Positions 23,410 to 56,575 of a stretch of DNA of 64,000 nucleotides are shown one piece after another. Below the pieces are notes generated by a model. It searched no databases. It saw only the letters and a program-made list of their open reading frames with translations, and was not told the origin of the DNA. The position numbers were made by a program, and so were the translations under genes. The DNA lies in assembly GCA_017882375.1 (NCBI GenBank), contig JADGPP010000010.1, positions 1 through 64,000 on the forward strand, given 5' to 3'. Position 1 is the first letter of the stretch. Every line of letters begins with the position of its first letter. The DNA is from Solirubrobacteraceae bacterium. GTDB lineage: Bacteria; Actinomycetota; Thermoleophilia; Solirubrobacterales; Solirubrobacteraceae.

Positions 23410-25080
23410 TCAAACAGCAGGTGCCGACAGGACAGTCAGCGGCCCTGGCGTGAAGTGAGTTATGACAGAGCGACACTCGGTCTGCGTCCGCGGACTGCTT
23501 GCACGACCATTAGCGTCATCGTAGAGCGCTACACGACCGTAGGGCGCGACAATTAGAATCCCACCGACGAGTGTGGCATCGATACCCTGAGCGTTGCAGG
23601 CGAGGGTGCTGCCCGGAATCACCGGGTAAGCGTTGACTGTGGGATCATGGTATGCGATCTGGACTGCTCCATCGAGGTCCCATGAGGCGGCGAAGGCCGG
23701 CACTCCGGGCGCAGTGTAGGCCGGCACTCCAAACGTGAATATGGTCTCGTGATGATGAACCCGTGGGAGACTCGTGTGTAGTGCATCGAGTAGCTTCAGC
23801 TGATAGCGCGAGGCGAGGTCGTACGCACTCGCGTCGATGCGGACGAGGTGCGTAAAGCCGATGCCGGTCAGCACGGCTAGGAGAATGGCCACCACACTCG
23901 CTAGCCGAGGATCCGCGATCCTCCCTCGCCCACCAGCAAAGGCCACGCCGCAGCTCGCTAGAGTGCCAAAGATCATGAAGATGCCGTACGTTGCGATCAC
24001 CAATCCCACAGCGGGCAGCGCATTCACGCGGTTGCCGACACCGAGAGTCAACGGGGAGTAGTAGGGCACGGCCGGTGCGAAGATGGTTCCCGCAACCGCC
24101 GTGATGGCAAGGCCGGCGAGCACGATCCAGATCCAGCGCGTCAACTGAGAGCGTCGCCGATCCTCGCGGGACAGGTGCCATGACACCTCTCGGGCGCCCG
24201 CGAGCAGCAGGGCGACGAGCACAAGAATCAGTGTGCGGCTTGCGTTTAGCGGGAACACCGTGTGCGCCAGCAGCGTGAGCAACTGGTCGTAGATCATGCG
24301 CGCGTGCGACGCGATCGCAGACAGCCCGTGGAGACGTGGGACTCCGGTGTTGCGTGCAAACGCGAACAGCAGGACGAACACGGCCGTAGCGTCGGCTGCC
24401 CACCTGGGCAGTGCGGCCCGCCTTCCGGCACGCCACCAGTAGAGCGCGCCGGTGACTATGATTACCGTCGCTGTGATTTCGTAGAGCAGGATGCTTCCGA
24501 CGTAGAGTGTCAGCGCCTCGAGGTGATAGGCGACTGCGACACGCCCATTGCGGTCGAGTCCACGTACCGCGGCGGTTACACCGAGCAAGTAGAGCGTAAT
24601 CGAGACGTTCGCGTCAGTCGCACTGAACCACAGATGCGTGGTATCAGCGTATGGGAACAGCAAGACGAGGCAGGCAATCGCACCGGCGTGTAGGCGTTCC
24701 AGGCCGAGCGTCCGTAGCGTGAGGAAAAGGGCGAGCGATAGTCCGATCGCCGTCAGAGCCGTAAAGGCTACGTAGGCATGTTGATGCAGACCGAGTGCGG
24801 CATGCACTGTGGACTCGTAGATGAGGAGTAGCGGACGATTACCGGGATTGATCGAGCTTGGTAGAAGAAAGTGCAGAGGCCCGTGTAGGTGGAAGAGCTC
24901 CTTGGATGCAATAAACCAGTCGTCGTAATAGAAGCCGCCATGCCTAATGTGTGAACCGAACACGAGCCATGTCACTCCAATCAGTAACAGGCCGGCGATG
25001 CCTAGTTCGCGGGCCGTTGGGCTCGCGGTTGGGTGGGCAGCCGACTTCGAGCGGGTCAGTGAGCTGTCCGGCGAATCCAC
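23410..25080 (-). CDS. Polytopic GT-C-type membrane glycosyltransferase
   Basis: GTG 25080 is chosen because the frame further upstream lies over the preceding gene and lacks membrane character. The 556-residue protein has about ten to eleven transmembrane helices. The first periplasmic loop carries FYYDDWFIASKELF, an acidic pair of the kind used as catalytic base in GT-C enzymes that take polyprenyl-phosphate sugars. A large extracytoplasmic C-terminal end follows the last helix (ASWDLDGAVQIAYHDPTV and beyond). Base composition is lower in GC than neighbouring blocks (34 of 60 at 24601-24660). The start overlaps the preceding methyltransferase stop by 25 bases. Confidence 0.75.
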   Translation of the reverse strand: MDSPDSSLTRSKSAAHPTASPTARELGIAGLLLIGVTWLVFGSHIRHGGFYYDDWFIASKELFHLHGPLHFLLPSSINPGNRPLLLIYESTVHAALGLHQHAYVAFTALTAIGLSLALFLTLRTLGLERLHAGAIACLVLLFPYADTTHLWFSATDANVSITLYLLGVTAAVRGLDRNGRVAVAYHLEALTLYVGSILLYEITATVIIVTGALYWWRAGRRAALPRWAADATAVFVLLFAFARNTGVPRLHGLSAIASHARMIYDQLLTLLAHTVFPLNASRTLILVLVALLLAGAREVSWHLSREDRRRSQLTRWIWIVLAGLAITAVAGTIFAPAVPYYSPLTLGVGNRVNALPAVGLVIATYGIFMIFGTLASCGVAFAGGRGRIADPRLASVVAILLAVLTGIGFTHLVRIDASAYDLASRYQLKLLDALHTSLPRVHHHETIFTFGVPAYTAPGVPAFAASWDLDGAVQIAYHDPTVNAYPVIPGSTLACNAQGIDATLVGGILIVAPYGRVALYDDANGRASSPRTQTECRSVITHFTPGPLTVLSAPAV

Positions 25081-26792
25081 AAAGCCGCCCCCGCCCGGTC
25101 GGCGTATTGAGCCTGCTCGGGAAACGCGCGGAGGATGCTCTCCGGGTGTCGCTGTGTCATGTACTGGGAACCCCAGACGATCTCGAAGGCGTTGTTGTAG
25201 CTGAGAAACGAGCGCACCAGGTAGCCCTCGTTCCACCCCCAGCCCTCCGTCACCCACGGTTCGGGATAGTCGCCAGGTAGGAAGATGTCGTGGATGTGCA
25301 CGTAGACCCCGGCGGCGAGGCGCGGCACGACCTCGTGAAAGATCCAAGTGACGTCGCCGCCTGTCTTGACGGTGTGCGAGGTGTCGATGAAGAGAATGTC
25401 GCCGGCGCCGAGTCCGTCGAAGAGCTCAAGCGGGGTGTCCTGGATCTGCTCGACGCGGAGGTCTGAGATCCCGGCCACTCCGTCGAGCAGAAATGGACGC
25501 GGATAGGGCTCGATGCAAACGAAGTCCATCGCTCCGTCGAGCTGCTCGCGGTTGACCCGCGCGGTCACGAGTGAGGAGTACCCGCTGCCAATCTCGATTG
25601 TCTTCGCCGGGCGCAAGTGGCGCAGCAGTCCGGCGAGCACCCAGGCGTCCAGCGGCGGGTACTGGCTGTTGAGTGCCCAGTACTCGCTCGGATCACCCGA
25701 CTCTTCGTGTCGCAGCTTCAGCGGCTGCTGCGCGGCGAACACTTCTTCGCAGAGCTCGACCTGGGCCGCATCGCGCCAGTTGATGTCCGGCGTGCTTCGA
25801 GGCTGGCGCGGCCAGATCTGCGCGCGCCGTTGCGCCAGCTCGCGCGCGTCGTACATTGGCGAGTAGTAGTCGCCCGGCGCGAAGCGCACGGGGACCGACG
25901 AGGGTGCGCTCTCGTCGCTGAGCTCGGGCACGACCTCCGCGGGTCTCGCACGGAAGTAGGCGTTGAGCGTGCGGAACTCACCGCGCGGGCCCTCCGCGAC
26001 GATCAGCTCCTCGACGGCGAAGCCGGTTACTTCCAGCATCCAGCGCATCGCCAGGCGGCCGGGCACGAACCACCAGGTCTTGTCGCCGGCGTAGGCGTCG
26101 GGGACGAAGCGGATGTACTCCGACTGGTCGGCGGAGCCGTGCAGCATCGAACCGAACAGCATCTCGCCGTCGTCGGCGAGCATCGAGCGAAGCCGCAGCA
26201 GCATCCCGAGCGGGTTGGGCTCGTGGTAGAGGACGCCGTTGCAATGGATGAGGTCGAAGCGCCCGAGCTCTTGTGGGTCGAGCTGTTGCCAGCCGATCTC
26301 TCGGAAGTCGATGCCGGTGCGATAGATCGACTCGAGGAACTGCGCTTGGCGAAAGAAGGCAAACGGCTCACACGCGACCACCTCGTCCGCTCCGCGCAGC
26401 TTCAACATGAACGGGTCATAGCCCGCGTTGGATCCCACATCGAGCACGCGCTTGCCGTGCAGGTCGCCGACGTGCTCGCCGAGCGTCTGCCAGCGCTGAT
26501 CGTTGCGCCAGAGGCCCGGGATAACGAGGTTGTCGGCCAGCAGGAATGGACCTTGCAGCCATGGCTCAAGATCTGCGATCTCGCGCTGTAGCTCTACCAC
26601 GCGCTCGGGCTCCAGCTCGTGAGGAAGGTCGGGTGAGAAGCGCGGAAGCTGTTGCAGGTCCTCCGCGTGCGCGGCCATCCCGATCTGGCGGAGCTGGCGT
26701 GCGACGTCGCCCCGAATCGCCGCCAGAGCGTCCTCGATCTCGCTCGCCGGCTCGCTCGACGTGTTCGTCTGGGTGGTCGGCTCGTCACTCAT
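25056..26792 (-). CDS. Fusion of two methyltransferase domains (CmoB/DUF1698-like plus Methyltransf_24-like)
   Basis: About 578 residues. After a helical N-terminus, the first Rossmann SAM domain carries KRVLDVGSNAGY near 115-126 and DLIHCNGVLYHEPNPLGMLLRLRSML, a CmoB/DUF1698-like pattern. A second SAM domain begins near 340 with EIGSGYSSLV near 400-410 and GDILFIDTSHTVKTGGDVTWI, then HIHDIFLPGDYPE. The second half is clearly related to the separate gene at 44320-45228. The likely role is O- or N-methylation of sugars of the glycan. It starts at an ATG overlapping the upstream gene stop (TGATG), so it is coupled to the giant glycosyltransferase. Confidence 0.85.
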   Translation of the reverse strand: MSDEPTTQTNTSSEPASEIEDALAAIRGDVARQLRQIGMAAHAEDLQQLPRFSPDLPHELEPERVVELQREIADLEPWLQGPFLLADNLVIPGLWRNDQRWQTLGEHVGDLHGKRVLDVGSNAGYDPFMLKLRGADEVVACEPFAFFRQAQFLESIYRTGIDFREIGWQQLDPQELGRFDLIHCNGVLYHEPNPLGMLLRLRSMLADDGEMLFGSMLHGSADQSEYIRFVPDAYAGDKTWWFVPGRLAMRWMLEVTGFAVEELIVAEGPRGEFRTLNAYFRARPAEVVPELSDESAPSSVPVRFAPGDYYSPMYDARELAQRRAQIWPRQPRSTPDINWRDAAQVELCEEVFAAQQPLKLRHEESGDPSEYWALNSQYPPLDAWVLAGLLRHLRPAKTIEIGSGYSSLVTARVNREQLDGAMDFVCIEPYPRPFLLDGVAGISDLRVEQIQDTPLELFDGLGAGDILFIDTSHTVKTGGDVTWIFHEVVPRLAAGVYVHIHDIFLPGDYPEPWVTEGWGWNEGYLVRSFLSYNNAFEIVWGSQYMTQRHPESILRAFPEQAQYADRAGAALWIRRTAH

Positions 26793-29700
26793 CACAGGTC
26801 ACTCGGCACCGCGGTTGGATCCTCTGAGCGGGTCAGCGATTCGCCGAAGCGCGAGCCCCACGGGATGCTCACACGAGGCCGCTGGAGCATACCCGTCACG
26901 GGAGCGATGGCGAGGGCGTAGCCGAGCATCTGCACCGGACCGTAGCCGAGCTCGCGTGCCTCGCTCGGATCTCGCGTGACAAGCTGATCGGCCGTTACCG
27001 GATGCGTCGCGGAGAACAGCGGATGGCGATCCCCACCGGAGTCGGACAGCAGCCAGGCGAGCGATCTCACGTCGCGCCCGCCGGGGGCGGCGAGTCCTGG
27101 ACGCGCCACCGCGTGACGCACGGCCTCGGCGCCTCGGCGTGCAACCGCCCGGGATCGCGCGCGCGCGCGGCCGAACCCCCGCCAGCTCGCAGGCGCGCCG
27201 ACCCAACGCAGGGTGCCCTGGAGATCGAACGGATGACGCGTCGGCGTGTAGGCCTCGGTGTGTAGGCGGCCTTCTGCGTCGACCCACGCCGCGATGCCGT
27301 TGCCGGGGTCGCGGTCCAACAGCGCGCCAAGCTCCCACGGGTCCCGGCCCGACGGCATGGCGCCGAGACCGACCCGGTGACGGCGCGCGATGGGGTCGAT
27401 GACGCGGATCAGGCCTCGCAACCAGGCTCGCGTCGGTGGCGTGGTCGGCACCTTGTGGGGGTTGATCGGCAGCCGGTCGATGTACCCGAGCACCGCCAAC
27501 GGCGGCCACTCGACGGCGTCGTGCAGTGGATCGTCCTCGCCGCAGATCATCACCGGCGCGCCGGTCCGCACGTGGCGGCAGACCAGTAGGGGCTCGAGCA
27601 TCGTGAAAGCGACGTCGTCGACATAGCCCAGGCTCGCTTCCATCTCATCGCCGGTGGGCTCGCCCCCCAACGCGACCGTCGCATAGCCCTGCACCTCGTC
27701 GTGCACGAGCCGCCTGGTGCCCTGCAACGACCGCGCGTGCACGATACCGAGGTAGTGCTCGGGGTTGAATCCATCCGGCGGTGGCGCCGTCGAGGTCACG
27801 GTCCACTGCTCGAAGCCGACGCGCTGGCTGCGCACGAGCGGAGTGGTGAACGCCGGGAACCAGCTGGGTGCGCCCGCCCAGCGTCTGAGGGTGGCGGCCG
27901 CGGCCGGCAGGGCCGGCTTCTCAGCCAGGCGCCGCTCGCGCTCCTCGCGTTCTGCACGATCGCCGACCGGCAGGGCGGGGATCCGATGAAACTCCCCCGA
28001 GGGCTGCACGGTCTGCGCCCAGGCCGCGTGCAGGTGGCGCCACTCGAGGTGGTGGCGTCGGATCTGCATCCAGCGCGCGAGCGTTCCGATCGGGTCGCCC
28101 GTGTCGAGCTGGCGCGGCATCTCCGCGTCGGGCAGGTCCAAGCGCGAGTAGGCGAGCGAATGCGGGTCGCGATCGCGCTCGTCGCCGATCGTCACTGCAA
28201 ACGGAGGAGCCTGCTGATCGCGCACGTCAACGAAGCAGAACGCCGTCTTACGCCGCCTGCGCTCGAGCAGCCGCACGATCCGCTCGATGCTGCCCGGGTC
28301 GCACAGCAGGTCGGGGAGGGCGCGTGTCGTGACCAGCACGTTGCGCCCGCGGCTCACCTCCAGCGCGTGTGCGAGCAGCTCGGCGGGCCGGGCGGCCAGG
28401 CGCGCCGACAACACGCGAACCGGCGGCCCCTGAGACCGATAGGCCATCTCACGATCCAGCGGGACGAGCAGCTCAAAGTCCGCGAAGACTTGGTCGCCCA
28501 GGCCTGCGAGCGCGGTTTGCCAGGCCATGCCAGAGGCCTCCAGCGGCGTGATCGCGATCAGCGAGAGCGACGGCGCCCATTGCGCCTTCAAGCTGGTGCT
28601 CGGAGCGGACTTGGGCCGATCCGCAGTGTCTGTGGAGAAGAGCCGGGGGTGGCGTGCCGTCGCCTCGAGGTGAAACGGCGATCCGGTCCACTCGACCAGG
28701 TCCGAGCGCGTGAAGCCCTCCTTGCGGTAGAGCATCGTCTTGCCGCGCGCCGGCTCGCCGTATATCCCATGTTCGGCCAGCGCCAGGAAGAAGTCCCAGT
28801 CCTCGTGGCCGAAGACGATGTCCTCGGCATAGGAGAACCCGAGATCGAACACGCTGCGATCGATCAGCGCGCATGTGTCGATGTAGTTCTCGCGAGCGAG
28901 CAGGAATGGATTGAACACGGGGGGCTCGAAGTAGTCCTCCCGATTTCCGAAGTATTGACAGTTTTGATAGATGAATCCGACATGCTCTCCCGCCGTTTGC
29001 AACTGCGTGACCAGTCGCTCGATTGCGTCGGGAAGCAGCAGATTGTCGGCATCGACCGGCAGGACATACCGACCGGTCGCTAGCTCGATCCCACGATTGC
29101 GCGCGGCGCTTGGCCCGGCGTTACGGGGCATCCGCACGACCTGCACCGCGTCATCGGCCTCTAGCCGGCGGACGTAGGCCTGCGTCTCGGCCTCGGTCGA
29201 GCAGTCGTCGATCACGATCAGCTCAACGTCCGGGTAGGTCTGCGCCTGGATCGACTCGACACAGTCGCTCAACGGCCGGCCGTGGTTGAAGCAGGGAGTG
29301 ATGACCGACACGCGGGGCGTACCGCGCGCTCGCCGCGCGCCCAGTTCTGTCTTGCCGATCGGCAGGTCTCGCGCCCGCGGCACCCGTTCGCTGCGGTCGC
29401 CGAGCAGGCGTTCGTAGAGTCGGCTGTGCTTGGCGCCCATCGCCTGAACGCTGAAGCGCTCGCTGACGATCGTCCGTCCTTGGGCTCCGGTCCTGCTGCG
29501 CAACTCGCGGCTGCGCAACAGCGGCTCCAGCGCGTCGGCGTAGGCGCCGGCGCGATCGCGCTGGTCGACGACGACACCCCCTCCCTCTCCCATCAACTCG
29601 AGGATTCCCGGCAGCGCCGGGGCGACGATCGGCAATTCCATCGCGAGCGCTTCGTAGACGATCACGGGAACACCCTCGAACGCGCTCGTCATCAGCAGCA

Positions 29701-30493
29701 CATCGGCGCCGGCGTACCAGGGACGAAGCTCGTGCGTCGCCGGCTCGAAGATGACCTCCTCGCGCAGCTCGTAACGCTCGACCAGCGCTCGCACCTCGGG
29801 CTCGAGGTCGCCGCCGCCGATGACGTGGACGCAGAAGGACAGCCCGCGCTCCTTGAGCTCGCGAGCGACCTCAACCATCAGCAGGGGGTCCTTCTGCGCG
29901 ACGAGCCGGGCGACGAACAGCAGATGAAGCCGGCCCTCGTCGAAGGCCTCGGGCTTGACACGCCGCGGTTCGAACAGGTCGGCGTCGATCCCGGTGGGCA
30001 CGACCTCGACCAGCTCCCGCGAGATTCCGTACCCGACAACCGCGTCGCCGACCACAGCGCTCGACACCGAAAAGGCATCGACCAGGCCGCCGTAGCGCGT
30101 GGTCACATAGCGGACGTAGCCATCGCGCGTGGGCTCCTCGACGTGGAGCTGGACGACCACCTTGGGCGGATCGCTCAGCGCGCGAAAGTCCGAGAGCATG
30201 TCGTAGCCGATGCGCGAGTTCATCACGTGGATCAACTCGATCTCGCGCGAGCGGATGAACTCGAGGATGAACCGGGGAAACTCGTTGCCTTCCATCAGCT
30301 CAGGCAGCTCCCAGACCTCGCTTGCGAACGGCACGATCTCCGAGAGCCGACGGTTGGTCGACGGCTGAGTGGTGATCAACGAGGGCTTGAACCGCGTGCG
30401 GTCGATCCAGCGAAACCAGTCGAGCGTGTTGGTGTCCGAGCCACCGTAGTCGACCCATGGCGCCAGATAAAGGACGGGAATGCGCTCGCTCAC
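26792..30493 (-). CDS. Giant bifunctional glycosyltransferase (GT4-GT2) with large unassigned C-terminal region
   Basis: The protein has 1233 residues from GTG 30493, which gives MSERIPVLYLAPWVDYGGSD; a longer frame overlaps the upstream gene. Residues about 1-380 are a GT4 GT-B domain (FVARLVAQKDPLLMVEVA, SAFEGVPVIVYEALAME). About 395-640 are a GT2 GT-A domain (RVSVITPCFNHGRPLSDCVE, VIDDCSTEAETQ, LPVDADNLLLP). From about 650 to the end is a large region I cannot assign, ending in repeated HPLFSATHPVTADQL-like and GYGPVQMLGYALA-like motifs. Two catalytic domains suggest successive sugar additions. It overlaps the following methyltransferase by a TGATG. Confidence 0.82.
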   Translation of the reverse strand: MSERIPVLYLAPWVDYGGSDTNTLDWFRWIDRTRFKPSLITTQPSTNRRLSEIVPFASEVWELPELMEGNEFPRFILEFIRSREIELIHVMNSRIGYDMLSDFRALSDPPKVVVQLHVEEPTRDGYVRYVTTRYGGLVDAFSVSSAVVGDAVVGYGISRELVEVVPTGIDADLFEPRRVKPEAFDEGRLHLLFVARLVAQKDPLLMVEVARELKERGLSFCVHVIGGGDLEPEVRALVERYELREEVIFEPATHELRPWYAGADVLLMTSAFEGVPVIVYEALAMELPIVAPALPGILELMGEGGGVVVDQRDRAGAYADALEPLLRSRELRSRTGAQGRTIVSERFSVQAMGAKHSRLYERLLGDRSERVPRARDLPIGKTELGARRARGTPRVSVITPCFNHGRPLSDCVESIQAQTYPDVELIVIDDCSTEAETQAYVRRLEADDAVQVVRMPRNAGPSAARNRGIELATGRYVLPVDADNLLLPDAIERLVTQLQTAGEHVGFIYQNCQYFGNREDYFEPPVFNPFLLARENYIDTCALIDRSVFDLGFSYAEDIVFGHEDWDFFLALAEHGIYGEPARGKTMLYRKEGFTRSDLVEWTGSPFHLEATARHPRLFSTDTADRPKSAPSTSLKAQWAPSLSLIAITPLEASGMAWQTALAGLGDQVFADFELLVPLDREMAYRSQGPPVRVLSARLAARPAELLAHALEVSRGRNVLVTTRALPDLLCDPGSIERIVRLLERRRRKTAFCFVDVRDQQAPPFAVTIGDERDRDPHSLAYSRLDLPDAEMPRQLDTGDPIGTLARWMQIRRHHLEWRHLHAAWAQTVQPSGEFHRIPALPVGDRAEREERERRLAEKPALPAAAATLRRWAGAPSWFPAFTTPLVRSQRVGFEQWTVTSTAPPPDGFNPEHYLGIVHARSLQGTRRLVHDEVQGYATVALGGEPTGDEMEASLGYVDDVAFTMLEPLLVCRHVRTGAPVMICGEDDPLHDAVEWPPLAVLGYIDRLPINPHKVPTTPPTRAWLRGLIRVIDPIARRHRVGLGAMPSGRDPWELGALLDRDPGNGIAAWVDAEGRLHTEAYTPTRHPFDLQGTLRWVGAPASWRGFGRARARSRAVARRGAEAVRHAVARPGLAAPGGRDVRSLAWLLSDSGGDRHPLFSATHPVTADQLVTRDPSEARELGYGPVQMLGYALAIAPVTGMLQRPRVSIPWGSRFGESLTRSEDPTAVPSDL

Positions 30494-30503
30494 GATGGCT
30501 TTG

Positions 30504-31223
30504 TCACGCGCCCATCGTCGCACGCACCGTAAAGCCAAGCGGCATGATCATCTGGACGTCGAGCGGGGCGAGCGCGACGAGCGCTTGTGCGATCTCCTCC
30601 AAGGCGCCGTGCGCCTCGTGGCGCAGGTCGTCCATACCGTCCGCCGCTGAGCCCATCGCCCAGCGCGCGTTGAGTACGAGTTGGGCGAGGGTCGTGAAGC
30701 AGTCGGTCCGCGGTCGCACCTCGATCTCCTCGAAGCCGGCGTCGGCGAGAAGCTGCTCGATGCCGTATCGCGTGTAGCGGAAGAAATCGTATGGAGTCTC
30801 GTGCTCCTCCCAGGCAAAGGGGACCGTCGCCACAAGCACCCCGCCGGGACGCAGGACTCGATGAAACTCGCGCAGCGCCTCCAGCGGCCGAGGGACGTGC
30901 TCCAGGACCTGCGTGCACACGATCGCGTCGAACGAATCGTCATCGGCGGGAATCGCGTCGGCCGCGCCGTGGAGGTCGACTCCGCCCGAATGGGGAGTGT
31001 CGTCGTGGTCGAGCGTCACGTAAGCGTGCTCGGCAAATAGCTCGCGGTACGGCGCCTCGCCCGCGCCGATGTCGAGCACGCGACTTTGCGGTGACATCGC
31101 GCGCGCCTGCTCGGCGACGAAGCGGTAGATCGATTCGCGCTCCAACGGCGCCCCGTCGATGAACTCTCGGAGCCGCTCCGAACGTCCTCGAAGCGATGCC
31201 GTTGGCTGCGATACCTCTCCCAT
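30504..31223 (-). CDS. Class I SAM-dependent methyltransferase
   Basis: ATG 31223 ([13 protein letters not shown]) is chosen because the upstream extension is Arg-rich and unrelated. In the 239-residue product the SAM motif I is [14 protein letters not shown], followed by VTLDHDD, then [31 protein letters not shown] with the expected post-I and motif III arrangement. It is a single-domain Methyltransf_11-type protein. Within a glycan cluster it probably methylates a sugar hydroxyl. TACACT (minus strand, 31234-31239) is a possible -10. The gap to the next gene on this strand is ten bases. Confidence 0.85.
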
Positions 31224-34180: not shown

Positions 34181-36103
34181 CTAGCGCCTGCCGTCGAACG
34201 ACAGCGAGGCCAGAGCGAAGCCGAGCGAGCGGTTCTCGCCCCACAGCTCCCAGTCTCGGCGCTCGGGGTTCGACCAGGTCGCCTCGGTCTCGAACGACAC
34301 CAGATAATCGCCCGCCGCAAGCTCAAGCGCGAGTTTCTGCTCGTGCCAGTCTGAGTCGCACCAGGCCACGGTTTGCGAGAACGTCTCGCCCGCCCCGCCC
34401 AGTGGCGAGAGCGCAATACACAGGCTCCCGATCGAGCGAGGCGGCAGGCAGTAGCTCAGACGGGCCGACCGAGCGGGCTCGGCAAGACGCACGACCGCCG
34501 CTGCGCGGCCCATGGCCCAGCGGTAGCGACGAGCCGGGCTCTCCTCGGGTTCGAACCATCCGTTCACAAGCTGATGCTCGACCGCAGGCGAGGCCATCTC
34601 CAGCCCGCCGGCCGGGATATCAAATGCCCTGGCAAAGGACAGGCTCGACAGCGCAAAGGCGAGCGAGCGCGTCTCCCGCGGTGGATCGGACCAGCCACGA
34701 GCGGCGCCGAAAACGATTTCGTAGTCGCCAGACGCCAACGCGAGCGGGTGGTTCTCCACCGAGCGGGCGATGTACTGCCACGACAGGCGCGTCCTCCACA
34801 CCGGCGTCAACGGGTCGGACGAGCCAACGCGCCGGATGCACACGTCGATTGGGCCGATGTCGACAGGCACGTGCGCGTAGTCCAGATGCATCAGCCCAGC
34901 GGGCTCGTACAGATGGACGAGAGCGGCAGCGCGCAGCCCCGCCCAGCGGTAGCTGCGCTCGCCGACGCGCTCGGGCGGAAACCATCCGTGCAGCAACTGC
35001 CCCTCGGAGTCCGGATCGTCGATCTCGACGCTGGCGCGCGCGCGCTGGGGAACTGGGCGAAGCCGCAAGGCCACGCCTGCGGGGAAGCCATCCCCCCACG
35101 ACGGGTCGATCAGCCGGTCGGGAACCCTGGGGGCGCGGCGCAGACGCAGGCGGCTGCCGAGCGCGCTCGGCAGATGGCGCCCGTTCCAGGCGATCGACCT
35201 GAGCTTCTGCACGCGGACAGGCATCGGCGCCGTCCGCAGGGTCCGCACCTCCCACGCCGCCCACCGCGCCAGCCTGCTCGCGGAGGCGTGCTTGAGCACC
35301 ACGCGCATGCGGTGGCGCTCGCACAGCAGCCGCTTGCGCGCCGAGTCGCCGCCGGCCGCGCCGAAGCCGTGGTCGATCCAGGCATTCGGCGCGACGGCAA
35401 CTCTGTAGCCCGCGCGCCACAGCCGTATGCCGTAGTCGACGTCGTCGTAGTAGTTGAGCATGCGGTCGTCAAACGGGCCGACCCGCTCCAGTGCCGCCCG
35501 GCGCAGCGCCATGCCGCAGCCCATCGGGTAGAGCGCCTCAGACGCGATCTGCGCCCACTCATAGGACTCGTTCATCGACAGATCGGCCGCCCAGCCTTGG
35601 CGGTTGACGATCCCTCCCGCGCCATTGATGAGGAGCGGGTTGTCGTCGAAGAACACCGTCGAGGCAACTCCGCCGATCGTCGGGTCATCTGCGAATGCAG
35701 CCACTACTTGGCCGAGCCAGTTTGGGGCGGCGAACCCGTCGGCGTCGATAAATGCGACGATCTCGCCCCTGGCGTGACGCAGCCCAAGGTTGCGGGCGCT
35801 CGGGCACCCGCGGTTGCGTCGACTGGACACGAGCGTGATCTCACCCTGGGTCGACGCTTCCTGCGCAACCTCCCGGGTGTTGTCGTCCGACCCATCGTCG
35901 ACGACGATGATCTCGCGATTCGTGTAGTCCTGTGCGAGGAGTTGAGCGAGACACCGTCCAAGGACCTCGGCCGAGTTCCAGCACACGACGATCACAGAGG
36001 CGACTGGGCCCGGCGCTGACGGGGAGCGCCCACCTTCACCTCTCGCTGAGCGGACAGCCTGACGGGCTTCTCGCTGCGCCTCTCTCCACTGTTGAGCCCT
36101 CAC
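34181..36103 (-). CDS. GT2 glycosyltransferase with two tandem copies of an unrecognised C-terminal domain
   Basis: Starts at GTG 36103 (640 residues). Residues about 33-270 form a rhamnosyltransferase-like GT2 (ASVIVVCWNSAEVLGRCL, VVDDGSDDNT, VAFIDADGFAAPNW, NYYDDVDYGIRLWRAG). From about 368 to 490 and 510 to 638 the sequence repeats itself: a WF-PE start (LLHGWFPPE, LVNGWFEPE), YRWA, an EP step (YEPAGLM, AEPARSA), SGDYEIVFGAA or AGDYLVSFETEA, a W then RSLAFALSSLSF or RSLGFALASLSF end. Each copy looks like a beta-sandwich and may bind the growing glycan. I do not know a named family for it. Confidence 0.8.
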   Translation of the reverse strand: MRAQQWREAQREARQAVRSARGEGGRSPSAPGPVASVIVVCWNSAEVLGRCLAQLLAQDYTNREIIVVDDGSDDNTREVAQEASTQGEITLVSSRRNRGCPSARNLGLRHARGEIVAFIDADGFAAPNWLGQVVAAFADDPTIGGVASTVFFDDNPLLINGAGGIVNRQGWAADLSMNESYEWAQIASEALYPMGCGMALRRAALERVGPFDDRMLNYYDDVDYGIRLWRAGYRVAVAPNAWIDHGFGAAGGDSARKRLLCERHRMRVVLKHASASRLARWAAWEVRTLRTAPMPVRVQKLRSIAWNGRHLPSALGSRLRLRRAPRVPDRLIDPSWGDGFPAGVALRLRPVPQRARASVEIDDPDSEGQLLHGWFPPERVGERSYRWAGLRAAALVHLYEPAGLMHLDYAHVPVDIGPIDVCIRRVGSSDPLTPVWRTRLSWQYIARSVENHPLALASGDYEIVFGAARGWSDPPRETRSLAFALSSLSFARAFDIPAGGLEMASPAVEHQLVNGWFEPEESPARRYRWAMGRAAAVVRLAEPARSARLSYCLPPRSIGSLCIALSPLGGAGETFSQTVAWCDSDWHEQKLALELAAGDYLVSFETEATWSNPERRDWELWGENRSLGFALASLSFDGRR

Positions 36104-38160: not shown

Positions 38161-39687
38161 ATGCGCGAGGTGCTTTCATCATCTAGCTTTACAGGCGTGG
38201 CGCGGCTGAGCGACGATCCGCCGGTCCAGGTTCCCCGGCCGGAAGTCGACGTTCTGGATACGGCGGCGGCCGGCGGACTGGTCATCCGGGGAGCGATCCT
38301 GCGCGTGCTCGGCTACGCCGCCGGCACCGTCTTCGCGGTCGGCTCGGCGGTGGTCCTCACCCGGCACCTCGGTGTGACTCGCTTCGGCCAATACACGACG
38401 ATCATCTCCGTCGTGACCGTGACGGGCGCCCTGACCGACCTGGGCATGACGAGTCTGGCGACACGCGAATACGCGATTCGCGAAGGCTTGGATCGAGAGC
38501 ATCTGATGCGCGATGTGCTCGGCCTGCGCATCCTCATAACCTCCGTCTCGATCGTCCTCGCGACGGTCTTTGCCGTGGCCGCGGGGTACGACGCGGCACG
38601 AATCCTCGGGACGGCCGTCGCGGGAATCGGGCTCGGCCTGGTGTCGGTGCAGTCGACCGTCGCCGTGCCCCTCTTCACGACGCTCCGGCTGGGCCAGACG
38701 ACCTCGCTGGAACTGCTGAGACAGGCGATCTGGGTCGCTCTCCTGGTGATCCTCGCGCTGCTCGGAGCGGGGATCCTGCCGTTGCTGGCCGCGACCGTCC
38801 CCGCGGGGCTCGTGATGCTCGCGGCGACCGCGGCGTTGACCCGCAGGCACATGCCGATCCGTCCGACCATCAGACCGATGGTGTGGGCCACGCTGCTCCG
38901 CGACACGCTGACCTTCTCGCTGGCGACGGGCGTGGGAGCGATGTACGTTTTCACCACCCAGATCCTCACCTCGCTGACCACCAACGGCGTGCAGAACGGG
39001 CTGTTCGCCGCGTCCTTCCGGGTGTTCATCGTGGCGGCGAGCATCGGCGGGCTGCTGGTCAGCGCGGCCTTTCCGGTACTGGCGCGCGCCGCACGCGACG
39101 ATCGCGAGCGCCTGCGCTATGCCGTGCAGGGCATGTTCGAGGTCGTCGTCATCCTGGGAGTCGCGGCGGCGCTCAGCGCCGTCGCGGGCGCCCAGCCGAT
39201 CATCGAAGTGATCGCCGGCCCGCACTTCGCCAGGGCGGCCGCGCCGCTGAGGATCGAGGGTGCCGCGCTGCTCGCCTCGTTCATCCTCCCGGCGCTCGGC
39301 ATGGCGCTCATCTCGCTTCACCGCCACCGGGCGCTGGCGATCGCCAACCTCGTGGCGCTCAGCATCACGGCCGCCCTGACGCTGATCCTCGCCAAGAGCC
39401 ACGGCGCGACGGGAGCCGCGGTGGCCACCGTCTGCGGCGAGTGGATCATCTGCGCCGGCTACCTGCTGGCGCTCACGCGAGGATCCTCGGCGCTGCGCCT
39501 GAACCCCTCGATCGTCCTGCGTGTAGCGGCTGCGGGAGTACCCGCCTTTGCCGTGATACTCCTGGGCCTGCCAGCCGTCCCGCAACTGGCAGCCGCGTTG
39601 GCGGTGTACGGCTGTCTCATCGTGCTCCTCAAAGCCGTTCCCAGCGAGCTGTACGCGCTGCTTCCGTTTCGCTCCCGAGGCGCATGA
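38161..39687 (+). CDS. wzx: Wzx-type lipid-linked oligosaccharide flippase
   Basis: A 508-residue polytopic protein with about 12-14 transmembrane helices and short polar loops. The N-terminal part (GGLVIRGAILRVLGYAAGTVFAV, TRHLGVTRFGQYTTIISVVTVTGALTDLG) is the polysaccharide transporter MOP-type pattern. It moves undecaprenyl-linked oligosaccharides from the inner to the outer leaflet. Next to it lie a DPM1-like GT2 and a DUF2304 protein. A Wzy polymerase was not seen, and an ABC exporter is also present in the same window. Start at ATG 38161 follows a short divergent gap. Confidence 0.85.
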   Translation: MREVLSSSSFTGVARLSDDPPVQVPRPEVDVLDTAAAGGLVIRGAILRVLGYAAGTVFAVGSAVVLTRHLGVTRFGQYTTIISVVTVTGALTDLGMTSLATREYAIREGLDREHLMRDVLGLRILITSVSIVLATVFAVAAGYDAARILGTAVAGIGLGLVSVQSTVAVPLFTTLRLGQTTSLELLRQAIWVALLVILALLGAGILPLLAATVPAGLVMLAATAALTRRHMPIRPTIRPMVWATLLRDTLTFSLATGVGAMYVFTTQILTSLTTNGVQNGLFAASFRVFIVAASIGGLLVSAAFPVLARAARDDRERLRYAVQGMFEVVVILGVAAALSAVAGAQPIIEVIAGPHFARAAAPLRIEGAALLASFILPALGMALISLHRHRALAIANLVALSITAALTLILAKSHGATGAAVATVCGEWIICAGYLLALTRGSSALRLNPSIVLRVAAAGVPAFAVILLGLPAVPQLAAALAVYGCLIVLLKAVPSELYALLPFRSRGA

Positions 39688-39835
39688 TCGCCCGTCGGTG
39701 GCATCCGGTTCGGTTTCGGCGCCAGGGGAGCCGCTACCGTTTGAGGACGATCCACCGCCCGCGCGCCGCAACTGTGCCCGCCGGCAACCGTTCCTCCGTG
39801 TAGGAGCGTCGCGTCCACGACGATTCTCGATCCGC

Positions 39836-40588
39836 ATGAACCGCTATCTCGCAATCGTTCCGGCCCACAACGAGGCCGATGCGATCTCGGCCACCGTGGA
39901 TGAGATCCATCGCTTCGCTCCCAGCTTCGACGTCCTCGTCGTCGACGACGGCTCCACCGACGACACCACGCCCCGCGCGGAATCGGCGGGCGCGACCGTC
40001 GTTCGGCTGCCGTTCAACCTGGGGATCGGCGGGGCCGTGCAGACCGGCTACCTCTACGCACAGGAACACGACTACGAGGTGGCCGTGCAGATCGACGGAG
40101 ACGGCCAGCACGATCCCCGCTACATCCACGATCTACTGCACCGCCTGCAGGCCGACTCGGACCTCAACATGGTGACGGGATCACGCTTCCTGGAACCCGA
40201 CGGTGAAGGCCACCGCTCCTCCGCTCCCCGTCGCATGGGGATCAGGATCTTCGCCGGCCTCGTGTCGTTGATCACGGGCCGGCGCGTGACGGATCCCACC
40301 TCGGGCCTGCGCATGACCAGCCGCATCGGCATCGAGCTGTTCGCTCGTGACTATCCCCACGACTACCCCGAGGTCGAGGCGATCCTGATGATGCACGCCC
40401 ACCGGCTGAACAGCTGCGAGATCCCCGTGGTCATGCGACCGAGGACGAGCGGCGTATCGGCGATCTCCTCGACCCAGCCCGTCTACTACATGGTCAAGGT
40501 CCTGCTGGCGGTGTTCATCGGGCTCTTCCGCGCCAACCCGGTCGTCGAGCAGGGCGACGCGCCGATCAACGCCGAGCACGCGATCTGA
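39836..40588 (+). CDS. GT2 glycosyltransferase, polyprenyl-phosphate sugar synthase-like (DPM1-like)
   Basis: ATG 39836 (MNRYLAIVPAHNEADAI) is chosen over a longer low-complexity extension. The 250-residue enzyme has VLVVDDGSTDDTT, QIDGDGQHDPRY (metal site) and GSRFLEPDGEG, close to dolichyl-phosphate-mannose synthase-like GT2 proteins that make polyprenyl-phosphate sugars for GT-C enzymes. The next gene, DUF2304, starts seven bases after its stop, a gene pair often found together. It could supply the lipid-linked sugar donor used by the GT-C proteins of this cluster. Confidence 0.87.
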   Translation: MNRYLAIVPAHNEADAISATVDEIHRFAPSFDVLVVDDGSTDDTTPRAESAGATVVRLPFNLGIGGAVQTGYLYAQEHDYEVAVQIDGDGQHDPRYIHDLLHRLQADSDLNMVTGSRFLEPDGEGHRSSAPRRMGIRIFAGLVSLITGRRVTDPTSGLRMTSRIGIELFARDYPHDYPEVEAILMMHAHRLNSCEIPVVMRPRTSGVSAISSTQPVYYMVKVLLAVFIGLFRANPVVEQGDAPINAEHAI

Positions 40589-40594
40589 GTCGTC

Positions 40595-41035
40595 ATGGCT
40601 ACTCAGCGAATCATCGCGATCGTGATCAGCGGAGGGCTGCTGCTGCTGATCCTCGAGCTGGTTCGCCGCAAGCGCCTGATGGAGCGCTACGCGCTCCTGT
40701 GGCTGTTCTCCACGCTGTTGCTGCTCGTCCTATCGCTGTGGAGCGGCCTGCTGAACTCGTTGGCCTCGGCGCTCGGCGTGTCCTATCCGCCCTCGGCCCT
40801 GTTCGCCGTCGCGTTCGGGGTGGTGCTCGTGCTGCTCGTCCATTTCTCGCTGGCGGTCTCCCACCTCTCCGACCAGAACAAGGTGCTCGCGCAGCGACTG
40901 GGCATCCTCCAACGACAGGTGCAGGAGCAGAACGAGAACCTCGCGAAGCTCGGCCACCAGGTCGAGACACAGGCAGAGGACTCCGGAGCCGACGGTCGCG
41001 CGCGCGACCGTGAGCAGCTGACCCCGACGAGCTGA
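40595..41035 (+). CDS. DUF2304 membrane protein
   Basis: A 146-residue small membrane protein with three hydrophobic helices (ATQRIIAIVISGGLLLLILEL, YALLWLFSTLLLLVLSL, ALFAVAFGVVLVLLVHFSLAV) and a helical, coiled-coil-like tail (LAQRLGILQRQVQEQNENLAKLG). The RRKRLMERYALLWL stretch after helix 1 is the DUF2304 signature that I recognise. Such proteins frequently follow DPM1-like GT2 genes and may anchor or regulate them, but the biochemical role is not established. It is translated right after its partner and before a GT4 gene. Confidence 0.8.
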   Translation: MATQRIIAIVISGGLLLLILELVRRKRLMERYALLWLFSTLLLLVLSLWSGLLNSLASALGVSYPPSALFAVAFGVVLVLLVHFSLAVSHLSDQNKVLAQRLGILQRQVQEQNENLAKLGHQVETQAEDSGADGRARDREQLTPTS

Positions 41036-47536: not shown

Positions 47537-47607
47537 GATGCTAGTAGCCTAGCCAACTCCGAGCTGCGCTCCTGCCGTTGGGCGGGCCGGACGCCCATCC
47601 CAACCAG

Positions 47608-50118
47608 ATGACAGGACTATTCCTCAGCGCCTGGGTGCTCTTTCCCCTGTCCCTGCTCGGAGTCTGCACCGGCGCGGGCTTGCTCGTCCGACGCCTCAGC
47701 GGCAACGCAGTCTCAGGTGCGTTGGTTCTTCCGGTCGGCTTTTCCGTCGCGGTTGCGCTCTCGACGCTCGGGACGTCGATCACCTGGCTAGCTCCAGCCA
47801 CCGGCGTGCTCGTCGTCGCCGTCGCCGTCGTGGGGATCGCCCTGGAGTGTCTGCTCGATCGTCCGCGTCCGCGAACTGCGCTGCGCAAGCTGATGCGAGT
47901 CGGTCCGTATCCAGCGCTTGCCGCGTTCGTGGCGTTCGCCGTGATCGCAGCGCCGGTCGTGTTGACGGGCACGGCCTCGTGGACGGGCTTCCAGCGCATA
48001 ACCGACACAGCCGGCCAGATGGGATTTGCACAGCACCTGGCCGAATCCGGGCGCTCGGTCCCGATCGGGAACTCCTCATTCAACATCACAATCCAAGGAC
48101 TCGCGGGCAACGGATATCCGGGCGGAGCGCAGGCCACCTTGGGAGTCATGGCCCACGTCATCGACACGGATGTCCCATGGTGCTTCCAGGCCTACCAAGC
48201 GTGGGCGGCCGCGATGGGCGCGCTTGCGCTGTTTGCTCTCCTGAGGCGTGTCATCCGCAGCCCGCTGATGTGCTGCATCGGCGCTGCCGTCGCGATTCAG
48301 CCGAACATCCTCTACGACTATGCACTGGTCAGCGGGATCAAGGAGCTGACGACCGCCAGTCTGATCCTGCTGGTTGTGGCGATTCTCGCCGAGCAACTCC
48401 CCGGTCCGCGTTCGCTGCGTTCCGGGCTTGCCCTCGCACCGGCGATTGCCGCATCCGTTGCTGCATTCAGCTACGGCGTCACCCCGTGGTTCGGTCTCCT
48501 GCTGCCGGCGGCGTTCGTCATCAGCCTGCTGGTCAGCGGAAGACGCCTGCGAACGGTCGCGAGCTGGGCCATCGCGGCAGTCGCAACGGCGATCCTGGCG
48601 ATTCCGACCGTGATCAGCTCGGTAAAACTCTTTGGTGATGTCAGGACTGCGGTGAACGGTGTCGTCGAACTCGGACTCGGCAACCTGACCGCGCCGATTC
48701 CGGAGATCTCTTCGGTCGGCGTATGGATCAGCAGCGACTACCGATTCCCGATGTATGCGCACGCCAGCGCCAGCCATGTCTTCGATGCGCTCGCAATTGC
48801 GTTGGCCGCGATCGGAGTCTTGTACGCGCTTTGGAGGCGCAGGTGGGTGGTTGCGGTCTTCGGCCTCGCGATCCCGATCGCGCTCGCCTACTGGGTCGCC
48901 CATGGCGGACCGTGGATCGAGCTGAAGGCGTACACGATCACAGCGCCAATGGTCTTGGCGATGGCATTCGTGGGCGCCGGCGCTCTCGCGACGCTCAGAT
49001 TGCGGCGCAGGAATGTGCAGTTGCCGTTGAACATCGCCGGATGGGCTGCCGCGCTCGCGGTCGCTGGGGCAGTGCTCTACGGAAATGCCTTGACCTATCA
49101 CGATATTTCGCTGGCCCCGGTGGCCCGATACGAACAGCTGGAGGCCATCGGGAAGCGCTTTGCCGGCGTTGGACCCGCATTCTTTCCCGCCTTTGACGAG
49201 TACTCCGAGTACTTTCTTCGACGCGAGCACGGGTACGACCTGAACATACCCCCCGGGCTCAAAGTCCGGCCGGGGGCGCTCGTACTGGCGCCGGGTCAAT
49301 TCGCGTTCGCCTTGGACCTCAACCAGCTCGAACTGAGCTTTGTCGAGTCGTTCCCATTGCTCGTGCTCGCACGAAGCCCGGTTGCAAGTCGTCCGCCCGC
49401 GAACTTCGACCTCGTCGATCAGACTGCGGATTTCCAGGTGTGGCGCCGTGTTCGTCCGGCCTCGGAGGTGCTGACCCACTTCCCGCTGTCCGGCCTGCCC
49501 ACCGAGCGGACGAGCGCGTTCTGCCAGAGCCTGCGCCAGGCCGTTCGCAGCGCGGGGACGGGAGCGTTGATTGCCTACGTTCCCACAAGCCCGCGGACTC
49601 TCCTGGTCCCGACGCAGGCAAAGCACCCCAGCTATTGGCACGCGGTCACCCCGGAAGCACTGCGGGCCTACGGTCAGGGTTCGATCGAAGGCTCGATCTC
49701 GATCCCCGCCGAAGGCACTTATGAAGTCTCGATGCCTGGCTCAGTCGGCCGCCGCGTTACCGTGTTCGTAGACGGGAGGCGGGTCGGGAGCATTGGCTAC
49801 CAGGAGCGCTACCCCGGACAGTACCTGCGATTCGGCCGGATCACGCTTAGCGCCGGAGCGCATTCCGTTCGTCTAACCCGCCCTGCGGGCGACCTTCACC
49901 CCGGTGACGGAGATGGTCCCGATACGTCCTCGGGCATCATCGGCTCATTGACGTTCGCCCTGGAACAGTCGCAGGCTGGGAAGCTGCGGTTGGCTGCAGG
50001 CAAGGACGCCGGCCCCGTATGTGCGACGCACGTCGGTTATCAATGGATCGAGGTACTCGCGCCTGCGGCCGTCGCCCGCCCGTCAGCTCGAGCTAGACGG
50101 GATGGAGTGGCCGCGTAG
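47608..50118 (+). CDS. Large polytopic membrane protein with C-terminal beta-rich extracytoplasmic domain
   Basis: ATG 47608 (MTGLFLSAWVLFPL) gives 836 residues. About 11-13 transmembrane helices occupy residues about 1-500, with an acidic extracytoplasmic region (ITDTAGQMGFAQHLAES). The rest is hydrophilic: a mixed region, then a beta-rich segment (GSISIPAEGTYEVSMPGSVGRRVTVFVDGRR, YLRFGRITLSAGAHSVRLTRPA) that looks like a jelly-roll/carbohydrate-binding module. This arrangement fits a GT-C-like transferase or polymerase acting outside the membrane. Its 3' end overlaps the following convergent gene by 26 bases. I do not recognise the exact family. Confidence 0.7.
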   Translation: MTGLFLSAWVLFPLSLLGVCTGAGLLVRRLSGNAVSGALVLPVGFSVAVALSTLGTSITWLAPATGVLVVAVAVVGIALECLLDRPRPRTALRKLMRVGPYPALAAFVAFAVIAAPVVLTGTASWTGFQRITDTAGQMGFAQHLAESGRSVPIGNSSFNITIQGLAGNGYPGGAQATLGVMAHVIDTDVPWCFQAYQAWAAAMGALALFALLRRVIRSPLMCCIGAAVAIQPNILYDYALVSGIKELTTASLILLVVAILAEQLPGPRSLRSGLALAPAIAASVAAFSYGVTPWFGLLLPAAFVISLLVSGRRLRTVASWAIAAVATAILAIPTVISSVKLFGDVRTAVNGVVELGLGNLTAPIPEISSVGVWISSDYRFPMYAHASASHVFDALAIALAAIGVLYALWRRRWVVAVFGLAIPIALAYWVAHGGPWIELKAYTITAPMVLAMAFVGAGALATLRLRRRNVQLPLNIAGWAAALAVAGAVLYGNALTYHDISLAPVARYEQLEAIGKRFAGVGPAFFPAFDEYSEYFLRREHGYDLNIPPGLKVRPGALVLAPGQFAFALDLNQLELSFVESFPLLVLARSPVASRPPANFDLVDQTADFQVWRRVRPASEVLTHFPLSGLPTERTSAFCQSLRQAVRSAGTGALIAYVPTSPRTLLVPTQAKHPSYWHAVTPEALRAYGQGSIEGSISIPAEGTYEVSMPGSVGRRVTVFVDGRRVGSIGYQERYPGQYLRFGRITLSAGAHSVRLTRPAGDLHPGDGDGPDTSSGIIGSLTFALEQSQAGKLRLAAGKDAGPVCATHVGYQWIEVLAPAAVARPSARARRDGVAA

Positions 50119-55250: not shown

Positions 55251-55300
55251 GCGCCTGGACCGACCCGGACGATCATCCGCTGGCTATACCCTGCTTCAGA

Positions 55301-56575
55301 ATGTCCGACGATGAGATGGTCCCGGGGAGGCGCCCCGCGGTTGCGGCGCAGGATGTACACAAGCGCTTCAAGATCCCGGAGGAGCGCAGCCACACGCTCA
55401 AGGAGCGCGCCCTGCACCCGCTGCGGCGATCGCGCCACGATGAGCTGTACGCGCTGAAGGACATCTCCTTTTCGGTCGCTCCCGGCGAGTTCTTCGGCAT
55501 CGTCGGACGCAACGGCAGCGGCAAGAGCACGTTGCTGAAGTGCCTCGCTGGGATCTACCGGACCGACCGGGGAAGAATCTGGTGCAACGGGCGCCTCTCG
55601 ACGTTCATCGAGCTCGGTGTCGGTTTCAACCCGGACCTGGCCGCACGTGACAACGTCGCCCTGAATGGGATCATGCTCGGCCTCTCCCCGCGAGAGGCCC
55701 GCGCGCGATACGACGGCGTTATCGAGTTCGCAGAACTCGAGGAGTTCCAAGAGCTCAAGCTCAAGAACTACTCGTCGGGCATGAACGTTCGGCTCGCGTT
55801 CTCGGTGGCCATCCAGGTTGACGCCGACATCCTCTTGATCGACGAGGTGCTCGCGGTCGGTGACGCCGCATTTCAGCAGAAGTGCTTCGACGTCTTCACG
55901 CGCATGCGTGACGAAGGGCGCACGATCATCTTCGTGACACACGACATGGGTGCTGTAACCCGATTCTGCCATCGCGCGATGCTGCTCGAGCGAGGTGAGA
56001 TGGTGATGATCGGCGACCCAGGTGACGTGGCCGACCGCTACCTCGAGCTCTCGTTCGGGCGCAACGTCGGTTACGACGAGCCCGACCTGGCCAGCCCACG
56101 GATGGGCGATGGCGCAGCCCGCGTCAGCGAGGTGTGGCTTGGCGACGATCGCGCCGAACATCGGACTGTCGCACTGCAGTCCGAGCCGCTGACCCTGAAC
56201 GTGCTCGTGCGCTTCAACAGTCACGTCGTCAACCCCGCCGTCAGCTTGACGCTGCTCAACGAACACAATCAGCCGGTGGTCGTCGCGACCACCAGTGACG
56301 AACATGAGGAGAGCGGCGGCTACCAGGAGGCCGAGGTGGCCGTGTTCAGCTTCTCGATGCACAACATGCTCGCCCCCGGTCGCTATCACCCAGTGGTTAC
56401 GGTCACGCGGCGCGGCGACGGCCTCGACGTGATCGACCGCTTCACGCGCGACATGTCGTTCGTCGTGACCGGCAAGAGCGCCAGCGGCGGGATGGTGGAG
56501 ATCCCCGTGCAGACGGAGGTAAACCGCTGGGGCATCCTGCACCCGGACCTGATCCAGCAGGCCCGAGAGGCTTGA
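55301..56575 (+). CDS. wzt: ABC transporter ATPase of polysaccharide export (Wzt) with C-terminal substrate-binding-type domain
   Basis: A 424-residue ATPase. Walker A is GRNGSGKST (69-77), the signature is YSSGMNVRLAF, Walker B is ILLIDEVLAVGD, and FVTHDM has the switch His. Residues about 270-424 form the extra beta-sandwich domain (LTLNVLVRFNSHVVNPAVSL, APGRYHPVVTVTRRGDGLD) found in Wzt proteins that recognise a capped O-polysaccharide end. That domain suggests chain-end-controlled export. The stop overlaps the ATG of the permease (TGATG). TATACC at 55285-55290 might be a -10. Confidence 0.93.
   Translation: MSDDEMVPGRRPAVAAQDVHKRFKIPEERSHTLKERALHPLRRSRHDELYALKDISFSVAPGEFFGIVGRNGSGKSTLLKCLAGIYRTDRGRIWCNGRLSTFIELGVGFNPDLAARDNVALNGIMLGLSPREARARYDGVIEFAELEEFQELKLKNYSSGMNVRLAFSVAIQVDADILLIDEVLAVGDAAFQQKCFDVFTRMRDEGRTIIFVTHDMGAVTRFCHRAMLLERGEMVMIGDPGDVADRYLELSFGRNVGYDEPDLASPRMGDGAARVSEVWLGDDRAEHRTVALQSEPLTLNVLVRFNSHVVNPAVSLTLLNEHNQPVVVATTSDEHEESGGYQEAEVAVFSFSMHNMLAPGRYHPVVTVTRRGDGLDVIDRFTRDMSFVVTGKSASGGMVEIPVQTEVNRWGILHPDLIQQAREA

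What the first reader, a model, noticed from the sequence alone, without database searches (positions are those of the whole stretch)
34181..36103. GT2 with two tandem copies of an unknown 125-residue domain
Residues about 368-490 and 510-638 share a repeated order of motifs: GWF-PE, YRWA, EP, GDYxxxF, W and R-LxFALxSLSF. Neither copy resembles a domain that I know. Tandem beta-sandwich modules behind a GT2 suggest glycan-end binding or chain-length control.
Basis: partly seen in the sequence, partly recalled or inferred. Interest (0 to 1): 0.6.

Follow-up and report, generated by a model that had tools for sequence, protein, structure and literature searches.

The report
GT2 with duplicated mobile sugar-binding-like module
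An actinobacterial sugar-adding enzyme carries two head-to-tail copies of a small beta-sandwich domain that has no name in the family libraries searched but turns up, singly, attached to or inserted into many different polysaccharide-building enzymes, so it is probably a shared handle for gripping the growing sugar chain.

Summary
The gene lies on the minus strand (34181-36103, 640 aa): a GT2 domain, a linker, then two ~135-residue repeats (residues 359-492 and 501-639). They are 41% identical; alignment score 206 against a shuffled maximum of 55.
Neither copy matches Pfam or NCBIfam. But the repeat is not an orphan. Stepwise profile searches in related genomes show that it belongs to an unnamed mobile module (signature G-[WF]-[YF]-x2-E...RW...[DE]-x-R-x-L). 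It occurs C-terminally on other GT2s, inside GT4s and one GT2, and C-terminally on GT-C-like proteins, methyltransferases and an O-antigen-ligase-like protein. Trp and Arg of the signature are invariant in all 31 copies aligned.
The AlphaFold2 model of one repeat (pLDDT 88, pTM 0.83) is all beta and resembles CBM6/CBM35-type jelly rolls (TM 0.5-0.6).
The nearest GT2s tested outside the direct orthologue carry one module. The two copies form one clade, and the orthologue in a second genome has both, so the tandem arose by an older local duplication.
Best explanation: an accessory module that holds the acceptor glycan for the GT2. Glycan binding is inferred; there is no evidence on chain-length control. 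Architecture most resembles S. aureus TarS, with a different module.

The parts
34181..36103 (-). GT2 gene with two C-terminal tandem modules, 640 aa (P0001)
   Evidence: orthologue L017:4852-6840
35354..36007 (-). GT2 catalytic domain, residues 33-250, with DxD motif D120-A-D122 and 'YYDDVDY' (residues 218-224)
   Evidence: Pfam PF00535 E 3e-36; 78% identical to the orthologue
35030..35353 (-). linker, residues 251-358, containing 'AWN..HLPS'; shared with single-module GT2s
   Evidence: blastp of P0001 to L058/L060/L070 spans residues up to 396
34628..35029 (-). module copy 1, residues 359-492 (G373-W-F, E378, R386-W387, E477, R479)
   Evidence: AlphaFold2 model mc589805dad89, pLDDT 87.8
34187..34603 (-). 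module copy 2, residues 501-639 (G515-W-F, E520, R528-W529, E623, R625)
   Evidence: profile hit 107.7 bits with the wider-family model

Best explanation
The protein is a GT2 glycosyltransferase (presumably cytoplasmic) of a large polysaccharide locus. Its C-terminus holds two copies of a mobile beta-jelly-roll module that has no name in the libraries searched. The module most likely binds a carbohydrate part of the acceptor (the nascent, probably lipid-linked glycan) and presents it to the attached catalytic domain. The duplication would lengthen or strengthen that grip (avidity, processivity). Shown by computation: the repeat, homology to modules on other glycan-assembly enzymes, a confidently predicted CBM6/35-like fold, a one-module GT2 architecture among the nearest relatives, and purifying selection. 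Inferred: the local duplication as the order of events, that the ligand is glycan, which glycan it is, and that two copies raise processivity.
For: Repeat significance. Homology beyond this protein: profile-profile E-values of the repeats against modules on GT2 (7e-7), GT4 (1.3e-8) and GT-C/methyltransferase hosts (2e-6); scores 40-53 against column-shuffled decoys of at most 20.0. Hosts: GT2, GT4, methyltransferase and O-antigen ligase by Pfam; GT-C by appearance of the sequence only. All are glycan-assembly enzyme types, whose common denominator is a glycan or lipid-glycan substrate. W and R of the signature are invariant in 31/31 modules; E is kept in 30/31 and D/E in 30/31. Fold: 10-strand all-beta model with pLDDT 87.8 and pTM 0.83; Foldseek hits are mostly CBM6/CBM35/CBM36 and the BT0996-C CBM (TM 0.62) at E about 1e-4. 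The GT2s closest to P0001 among those compared, apart from the orthologue, carry one C-terminal module, with homology running through the linker (E to 1e-39). The four tandem copies form one clade (support 100/99). Published precedent: S. aureus TarS, a GT2 with two C-terminal tandem CBM-type domains; removing them lowered intrinsic processivity from about 2400 to 133 (PMC5156392).
Against: No binding data exist. The jelly-roll fold is also used for protein binding: Foldseek also hits the EphA7 ligand-binding domain and IFT25. TM 0.5-0.62 is fold-level only. The full-length model failed (pLDDT 41), so the orientation of modules to the active site is unknown. The PDB profile searches gave no significant carbohydrate-binding relative.
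Confidence: 0.6

Rival explanations
1. The module is a protein-protein or oligomerisation domain that gathers the GT2, GT4, methyltransferase, GT-C and ligase proteins of one pathway into a complex, or makes the GT2 oligomeric; the tandem pair gives two docking faces.
For: One module family sits on many different enzymes, and in two loci neighbouring GT2 and GT4 genes both carry it (L056 and L063). In TarS the stacked CBM-type domains form the trimer interface. Foldseek also finds protein-binding jelly rolls.
Against: In the window only this one of many glycosyltransferases carries the module, so no partner module is present. The closest solved folds are mostly sugar binders.
Confidence: 0.25
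2. The tandem sets polysaccharide chain length (molecular ruler or end recognition).
For: The locus holds an ABC exporter whose ATPase has its own Wzt_C domain (54605-57495), the setting in which end recognition is known (PMC9445017).
Against: Known rulers are coiled coils on terminator proteins, and end recognition lies on the Wzt CBM (PMC11231755). The module is not related to the window's Wzt_C by profile comparison (probability 1.3 or less). The same module occurs singly on many other enzymes.
Confidence: 0.1
3. The copies are a degenerate leftover of a duplication without function.
For: Copy 2 is less conserved between the two orthologues (53%) than copy 1 (68%) or the GT2 domain (78%); the tandem was found in only two genomes.
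Against: Both copies keep every signature residue in both genomes, and dN/dS is about 0.21 (copy 1) and 0.27 (copy 2).
Confidence: 0.05

Closest known systems
S. aureus TarS (GT2, PDB 5tz8; PMC5156392)
   Same: GT2 catalytic domain, linker, then two C-terminal beta-sandwich domains of carbohydrate-binding type in tandem, on an enzyme acting on a surface glycopolymer.
   Different: TarS modules are Ig-like, close to CBM48/CBM68, and form a trimer interface. The modules here give CBM6/35-like jelly-roll matches and are clear duplicates of each other (41% identity). P0001 matches TarS by sequence only in residues 36-140.
CBM6 / CBM35 / CBM36 carbohydrate-binding modules (e.g. 1gmm, 2wz8) and BT0996-C CBM (7zvo)
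   Same: Beta-jelly-roll fold of similar size; TM mostly 0.45-0.62, Foldseek E 1e-5 to 1e-3.
   Different: No sequence-level match: no CBM family is reached in Pfam. The E/RW/D-x-R signature is not a described feature of those families as far as I know. They sit mostly on secreted hydrolases, not on glycosyltransferases.
Wzt_C (PF14524) glycan-end-recognition domain of O-antigen ABC transporters
   Same: A beta-sandwich accessory domain on a polysaccharide-assembly protein; one is present in this window.
   Different: No Pfam match of the repeats and no profile similarity to the window's own Wzt_C; no Wzt_C structure was among the 50 best Foldseek hits listed.
Single-module GT2s of the phylum (L058, L059, L060, L070, L056)
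   Same: Same order GT2, linker, C-terminal module; about 28-33% identity over GT2 plus linker.
   Different: One module copy, not two.

Membership tests
GT2 glycosyltransferase | Pfam Glycos_transf_2 (PF00535) above its cut-off | tested here: met
   125.3 bits against a cut-off of 23.3
GT2 glycosyltransferase | DxD metal motif and downstream acidic catalytic motif | tested here: met
   D120-A-D122 and Y218-YDDVDY conserved in both orthologues
GT2 glycosyltransferase | transferase activity with a nucleotide sugar | not testable with these tools
   needs enzyme assay
CBM6/CBM35-type carbohydrate-binding module | beta-jelly-roll fold | tested here: met
   model pLDDT 87.8; CBM6/35/36 among the top Foldseek hits
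CBM6/CBM35-type carbohydrate-binding module | sequence membership (Pfam model) | tested here: not met
   no Pfam family for any of four repeats up to E 10 except an unrelated chance hit at E 0.049
CBM6/CBM35-type carbohydrate-binding module | binding of a carbohydrate | not testable with these tools
   needs glycan array, ITC or affinity gel
Wzt_C (PF14524) | sequence or profile similarity | tested here: not met
   no Pfam hit; hhalign probability 0.4-1.3 against the window's Wzt_C
TarS-type GT2 | GT2 followed by two C-terminal beta-domains | tested here: met
TarS-type GT2 | C-terminal domains of CBM48/CBM68 (Ig-like) type | tested here: not met
   TarS matched only in the catalytic part; structural hits are CBM6/35-like
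TarS-type GT2 | trimer through the C-terminal domains | not testable with these tools
   full-length model too poor
Unnamed mobile 'GWY-E-RW-DxRxL' module of glycan-assembly enzymes (defined here) | signature E, W, D/E and R, and profile similarity above decoys | tested here: met

The most novel reading that the evidence does not exclude
An undescribed carbohydrate-binding module family exists that is shared by enzymes probably working on both faces of the membrane (GT2, GT4, methyltransferase, GT-C, O-antigen ligase). It is inserted even inside GT-B enzymes, and gives each of them a grip on the nascent glycan, so that one pathway's enzymes recognise a common glycan feature; this protein's tandem is the two-site version.
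Probability: 0.35. Interest if true: 0.75.

Novelty: new variant of a known kind. Interest (0 to 1): 0.5.

Why it matters
Acceptor recognition is the least predictable part of polysaccharide biosynthesis. A recognisable module that recurs across unrelated glycan-assembly enzymes, with an invariant signature and no entry in the libraries searched, gives a handle for annotating these loci and for testing how acceptor binding is organised. The natural one-copy and two-copy GT2s allow a direct test of what a second copy adds. Within the window itself the finding is one gene among many glycosyltransferases.

Tried and rejected
Pfam, NCBIfam and PHROGs gave no name for the repeats. PDB sequence searches with the 4-row and 15-row profiles gave nothing convincing; the top hits of the latter are de novo Ig designs whose single domains have E above 1. 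No copy elsewhere in the window or in the own genome. No viral contig or plasmid was found to carry it. The one genome-contig scan found only the orthologue. Full-length AlphaFold2 with two rows failed, so it was not used. The viral fold library gave only broad jelly-roll hits. A chain-length ruler was considered and given low probability. Weak hits L042, L043 and L045 were judged spurious by eye and left out; L023, L034, L039, L041, L044 and L046 were also left out of the module alignment.

Full report
Observation. The reading frame is on the minus strand, 34181-36103, 640 residues. The GT2 domain is clear (PF00535, E 3e-36). Residues 359-492 and 501-639 align with score 206, while 1000 shuffles reached 55 at most; identity is 41%. 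The repeat is real, at the stated place.

Is it named? Neither repeat matches Pfam or NCBIfam, and the repeats of the orthologue match no relevant Pfam family.

Close relatives. Of 61 related genomes only one other, in the same genus (G004, the record behind L017, a Solirubrobacterales MAG), has the protein, again with two copies. A search of 121 genomes of the family found no third. Copy 1 is 68% and copy 2 53% identical between the two, the GT2 domain 78%; dN/dS is about 0.14 for GT2, 0.21 for copy 1 and 0.27 for copy 2. The copies resemble their own counterpart in the other genome more than each other, so the duplication is older than the split. Part of the neighbourhood (flippase, GT2 with DUF2304, GT-GT2 fusion, methyltransferase) has counterparts next to the orthologue.

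Wider family. A four-repeat profile found one faint hit at the end of a GT-C-like membrane protein (L015). Its own relatives, then a seven-row profile and a fifteen-row profile, brought in many more. The hosts are: GT2 with one C-terminal module (L056, L058, L059, L060, L070); GT4 with the module inside the reading frame between the Glyco_transf_4 and Glycos_transf_1 matches (L057, L063; also L055, L065 by sequence); a GT4-like second frame of L056 (cut by the locus end); a GT2 with an internal module (L067); methyltransferases (L066, L038); an O-antigen-ligase-like protein (L061, Wzy_C); and GT-C-like membrane proteins (L015, L018, L019, L022, L030-L033, L035-L037, L040). The GT-C label rests on the look of the sequences: no Pfam family passes its cut-off for the two scanned.

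Is that homology real? The searches were iterative, so I tested it with profile-profile comparison. The four repeats against ten GT-C/methyltransferase modules, without the three seed rows, give E 2e-6 and score 40.1; 100 column shuffles reached 15.9, the reversed profile 9.8, and other parts of the host proteins 13.9. The last two host windows score 26.7 and 34.6 because they overlap the module. Against GT2 modules the score is 44.0 and against GT4 modules 52.6; shuffles reached 20.0 and 18.4. The other module groups match one another with E 7e-7 to 7e-13. In 31 aligned modules, W387 and R479 (numbering of P0001 copy 1) are invariant, E378 is kept in 30, and position 477 is D or E in 30. These columns come from an alignment of hits to related profiles, so invariance is somewhat favoured by selection.

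Origin of the tandem. The GT2s most similar to P0001 among the sequences compared, apart from the orthologue, are those with a single C-terminal module (E to 1e-39), and the match runs through the linker; other GT2s of the window match less well. That comparison set was small, and the single-module GT2s were found through their module, so a closer GT2 without a module could exist elsewhere. The four tandem copies form one clade (100/99). The simplest history is a GT2 with one module whose module was duplicated locally. The tree does not resolve which module group is the sister.

Fold. One repeat modelled with four rows gives pLDDT 87.8 and pTM 0.83, ten strands and no helix. Foldseek against the PDB gives mostly CBM6, CBM35 and CBM36 modules and the BT0996-C CBM (TM 0.62), with E near 1e-4, but also protein-binding jelly rolls. 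This is a fold-level statement. The full-length model failed.

Setting. The window is a large polysaccharide locus with many GT2 and GT4 proteins, a flippase, methyltransferases, epimerases, and a Wzm/Wzt-type ABC exporter with its own Wzt_C domain. The repeats are not related to that Wzt_C.

Mechanism. The module is attached to enzymes of different reactions whose shared feature is a glycan or lipid-glycan substrate, and its fold is one typical of sugar-binding modules. The most economical reading is an acceptor-binding accessory domain. TarS offers a precedent: a GT2 with two C-terminal CBM-type domains whose removal raised the acceptor Km about twofold and lowered processivity (PMC5156392). 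The main rival is assembly of enzyme complexes. Chain-length control has no direct support.

Limits. The genome searches score only the best 10-17 candidates per genome in large runs, so counts of genomes with the module are lower bounds. Only one phylum was sampled. I could not look in UniProt, InterPro or CAZy, so a name for the module may exist there. From memory, similar 'GWYxxE...RW' endings occur in glycosyltransferases of other bacteria; this was not tested.

Noticed in passing
L056 (GT2 and GT4 frames) and L063 (GT2 end and GT4): Neighbouring GT2 and GT4 genes both carry the module, C-terminal in one and internal in the other.
   Followed up: partly
L067:964-2367: A GT2 with the module inserted in the middle of the catalytic domain region, splitting the GT2 match.
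   Followed up: partly
26792-30538 (-): 1248-aa GT4+GT2 fusion whose last ~600 residues have no Pfam match; not related to the repeat.
   Followed up: partly
47578-50118 (+): 846-aa multi-membrane protein with no Pfam match and a beta-rich-looking C-terminal region; only a weak partial profile similarity to the module (hhalign probability 11).
   Followed up: partly
23410-25347 (-): 645-aa membrane protein without any Pfam match in the polysaccharide locus.
   Followed up: no
54605-57495 (+): Wzt/Wzm-type polysaccharide ABC exporter; the ATPase bears a Wzt_C domain, while a flippase gene (38161-39687) lies in the same locus, so two export routes may coexist.
   Followed up: no
39698-41035 (+): GT2 next to a DUF2304 membrane protein, conserved beside the orthologue (GT2 73% identity), perhaps a polyprenyl-phosphate-sugar synthase pair.
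   Followed up: partly
L038, L066: SAM methyltransferases ending in a single copy of the module.
   Followed up: partly
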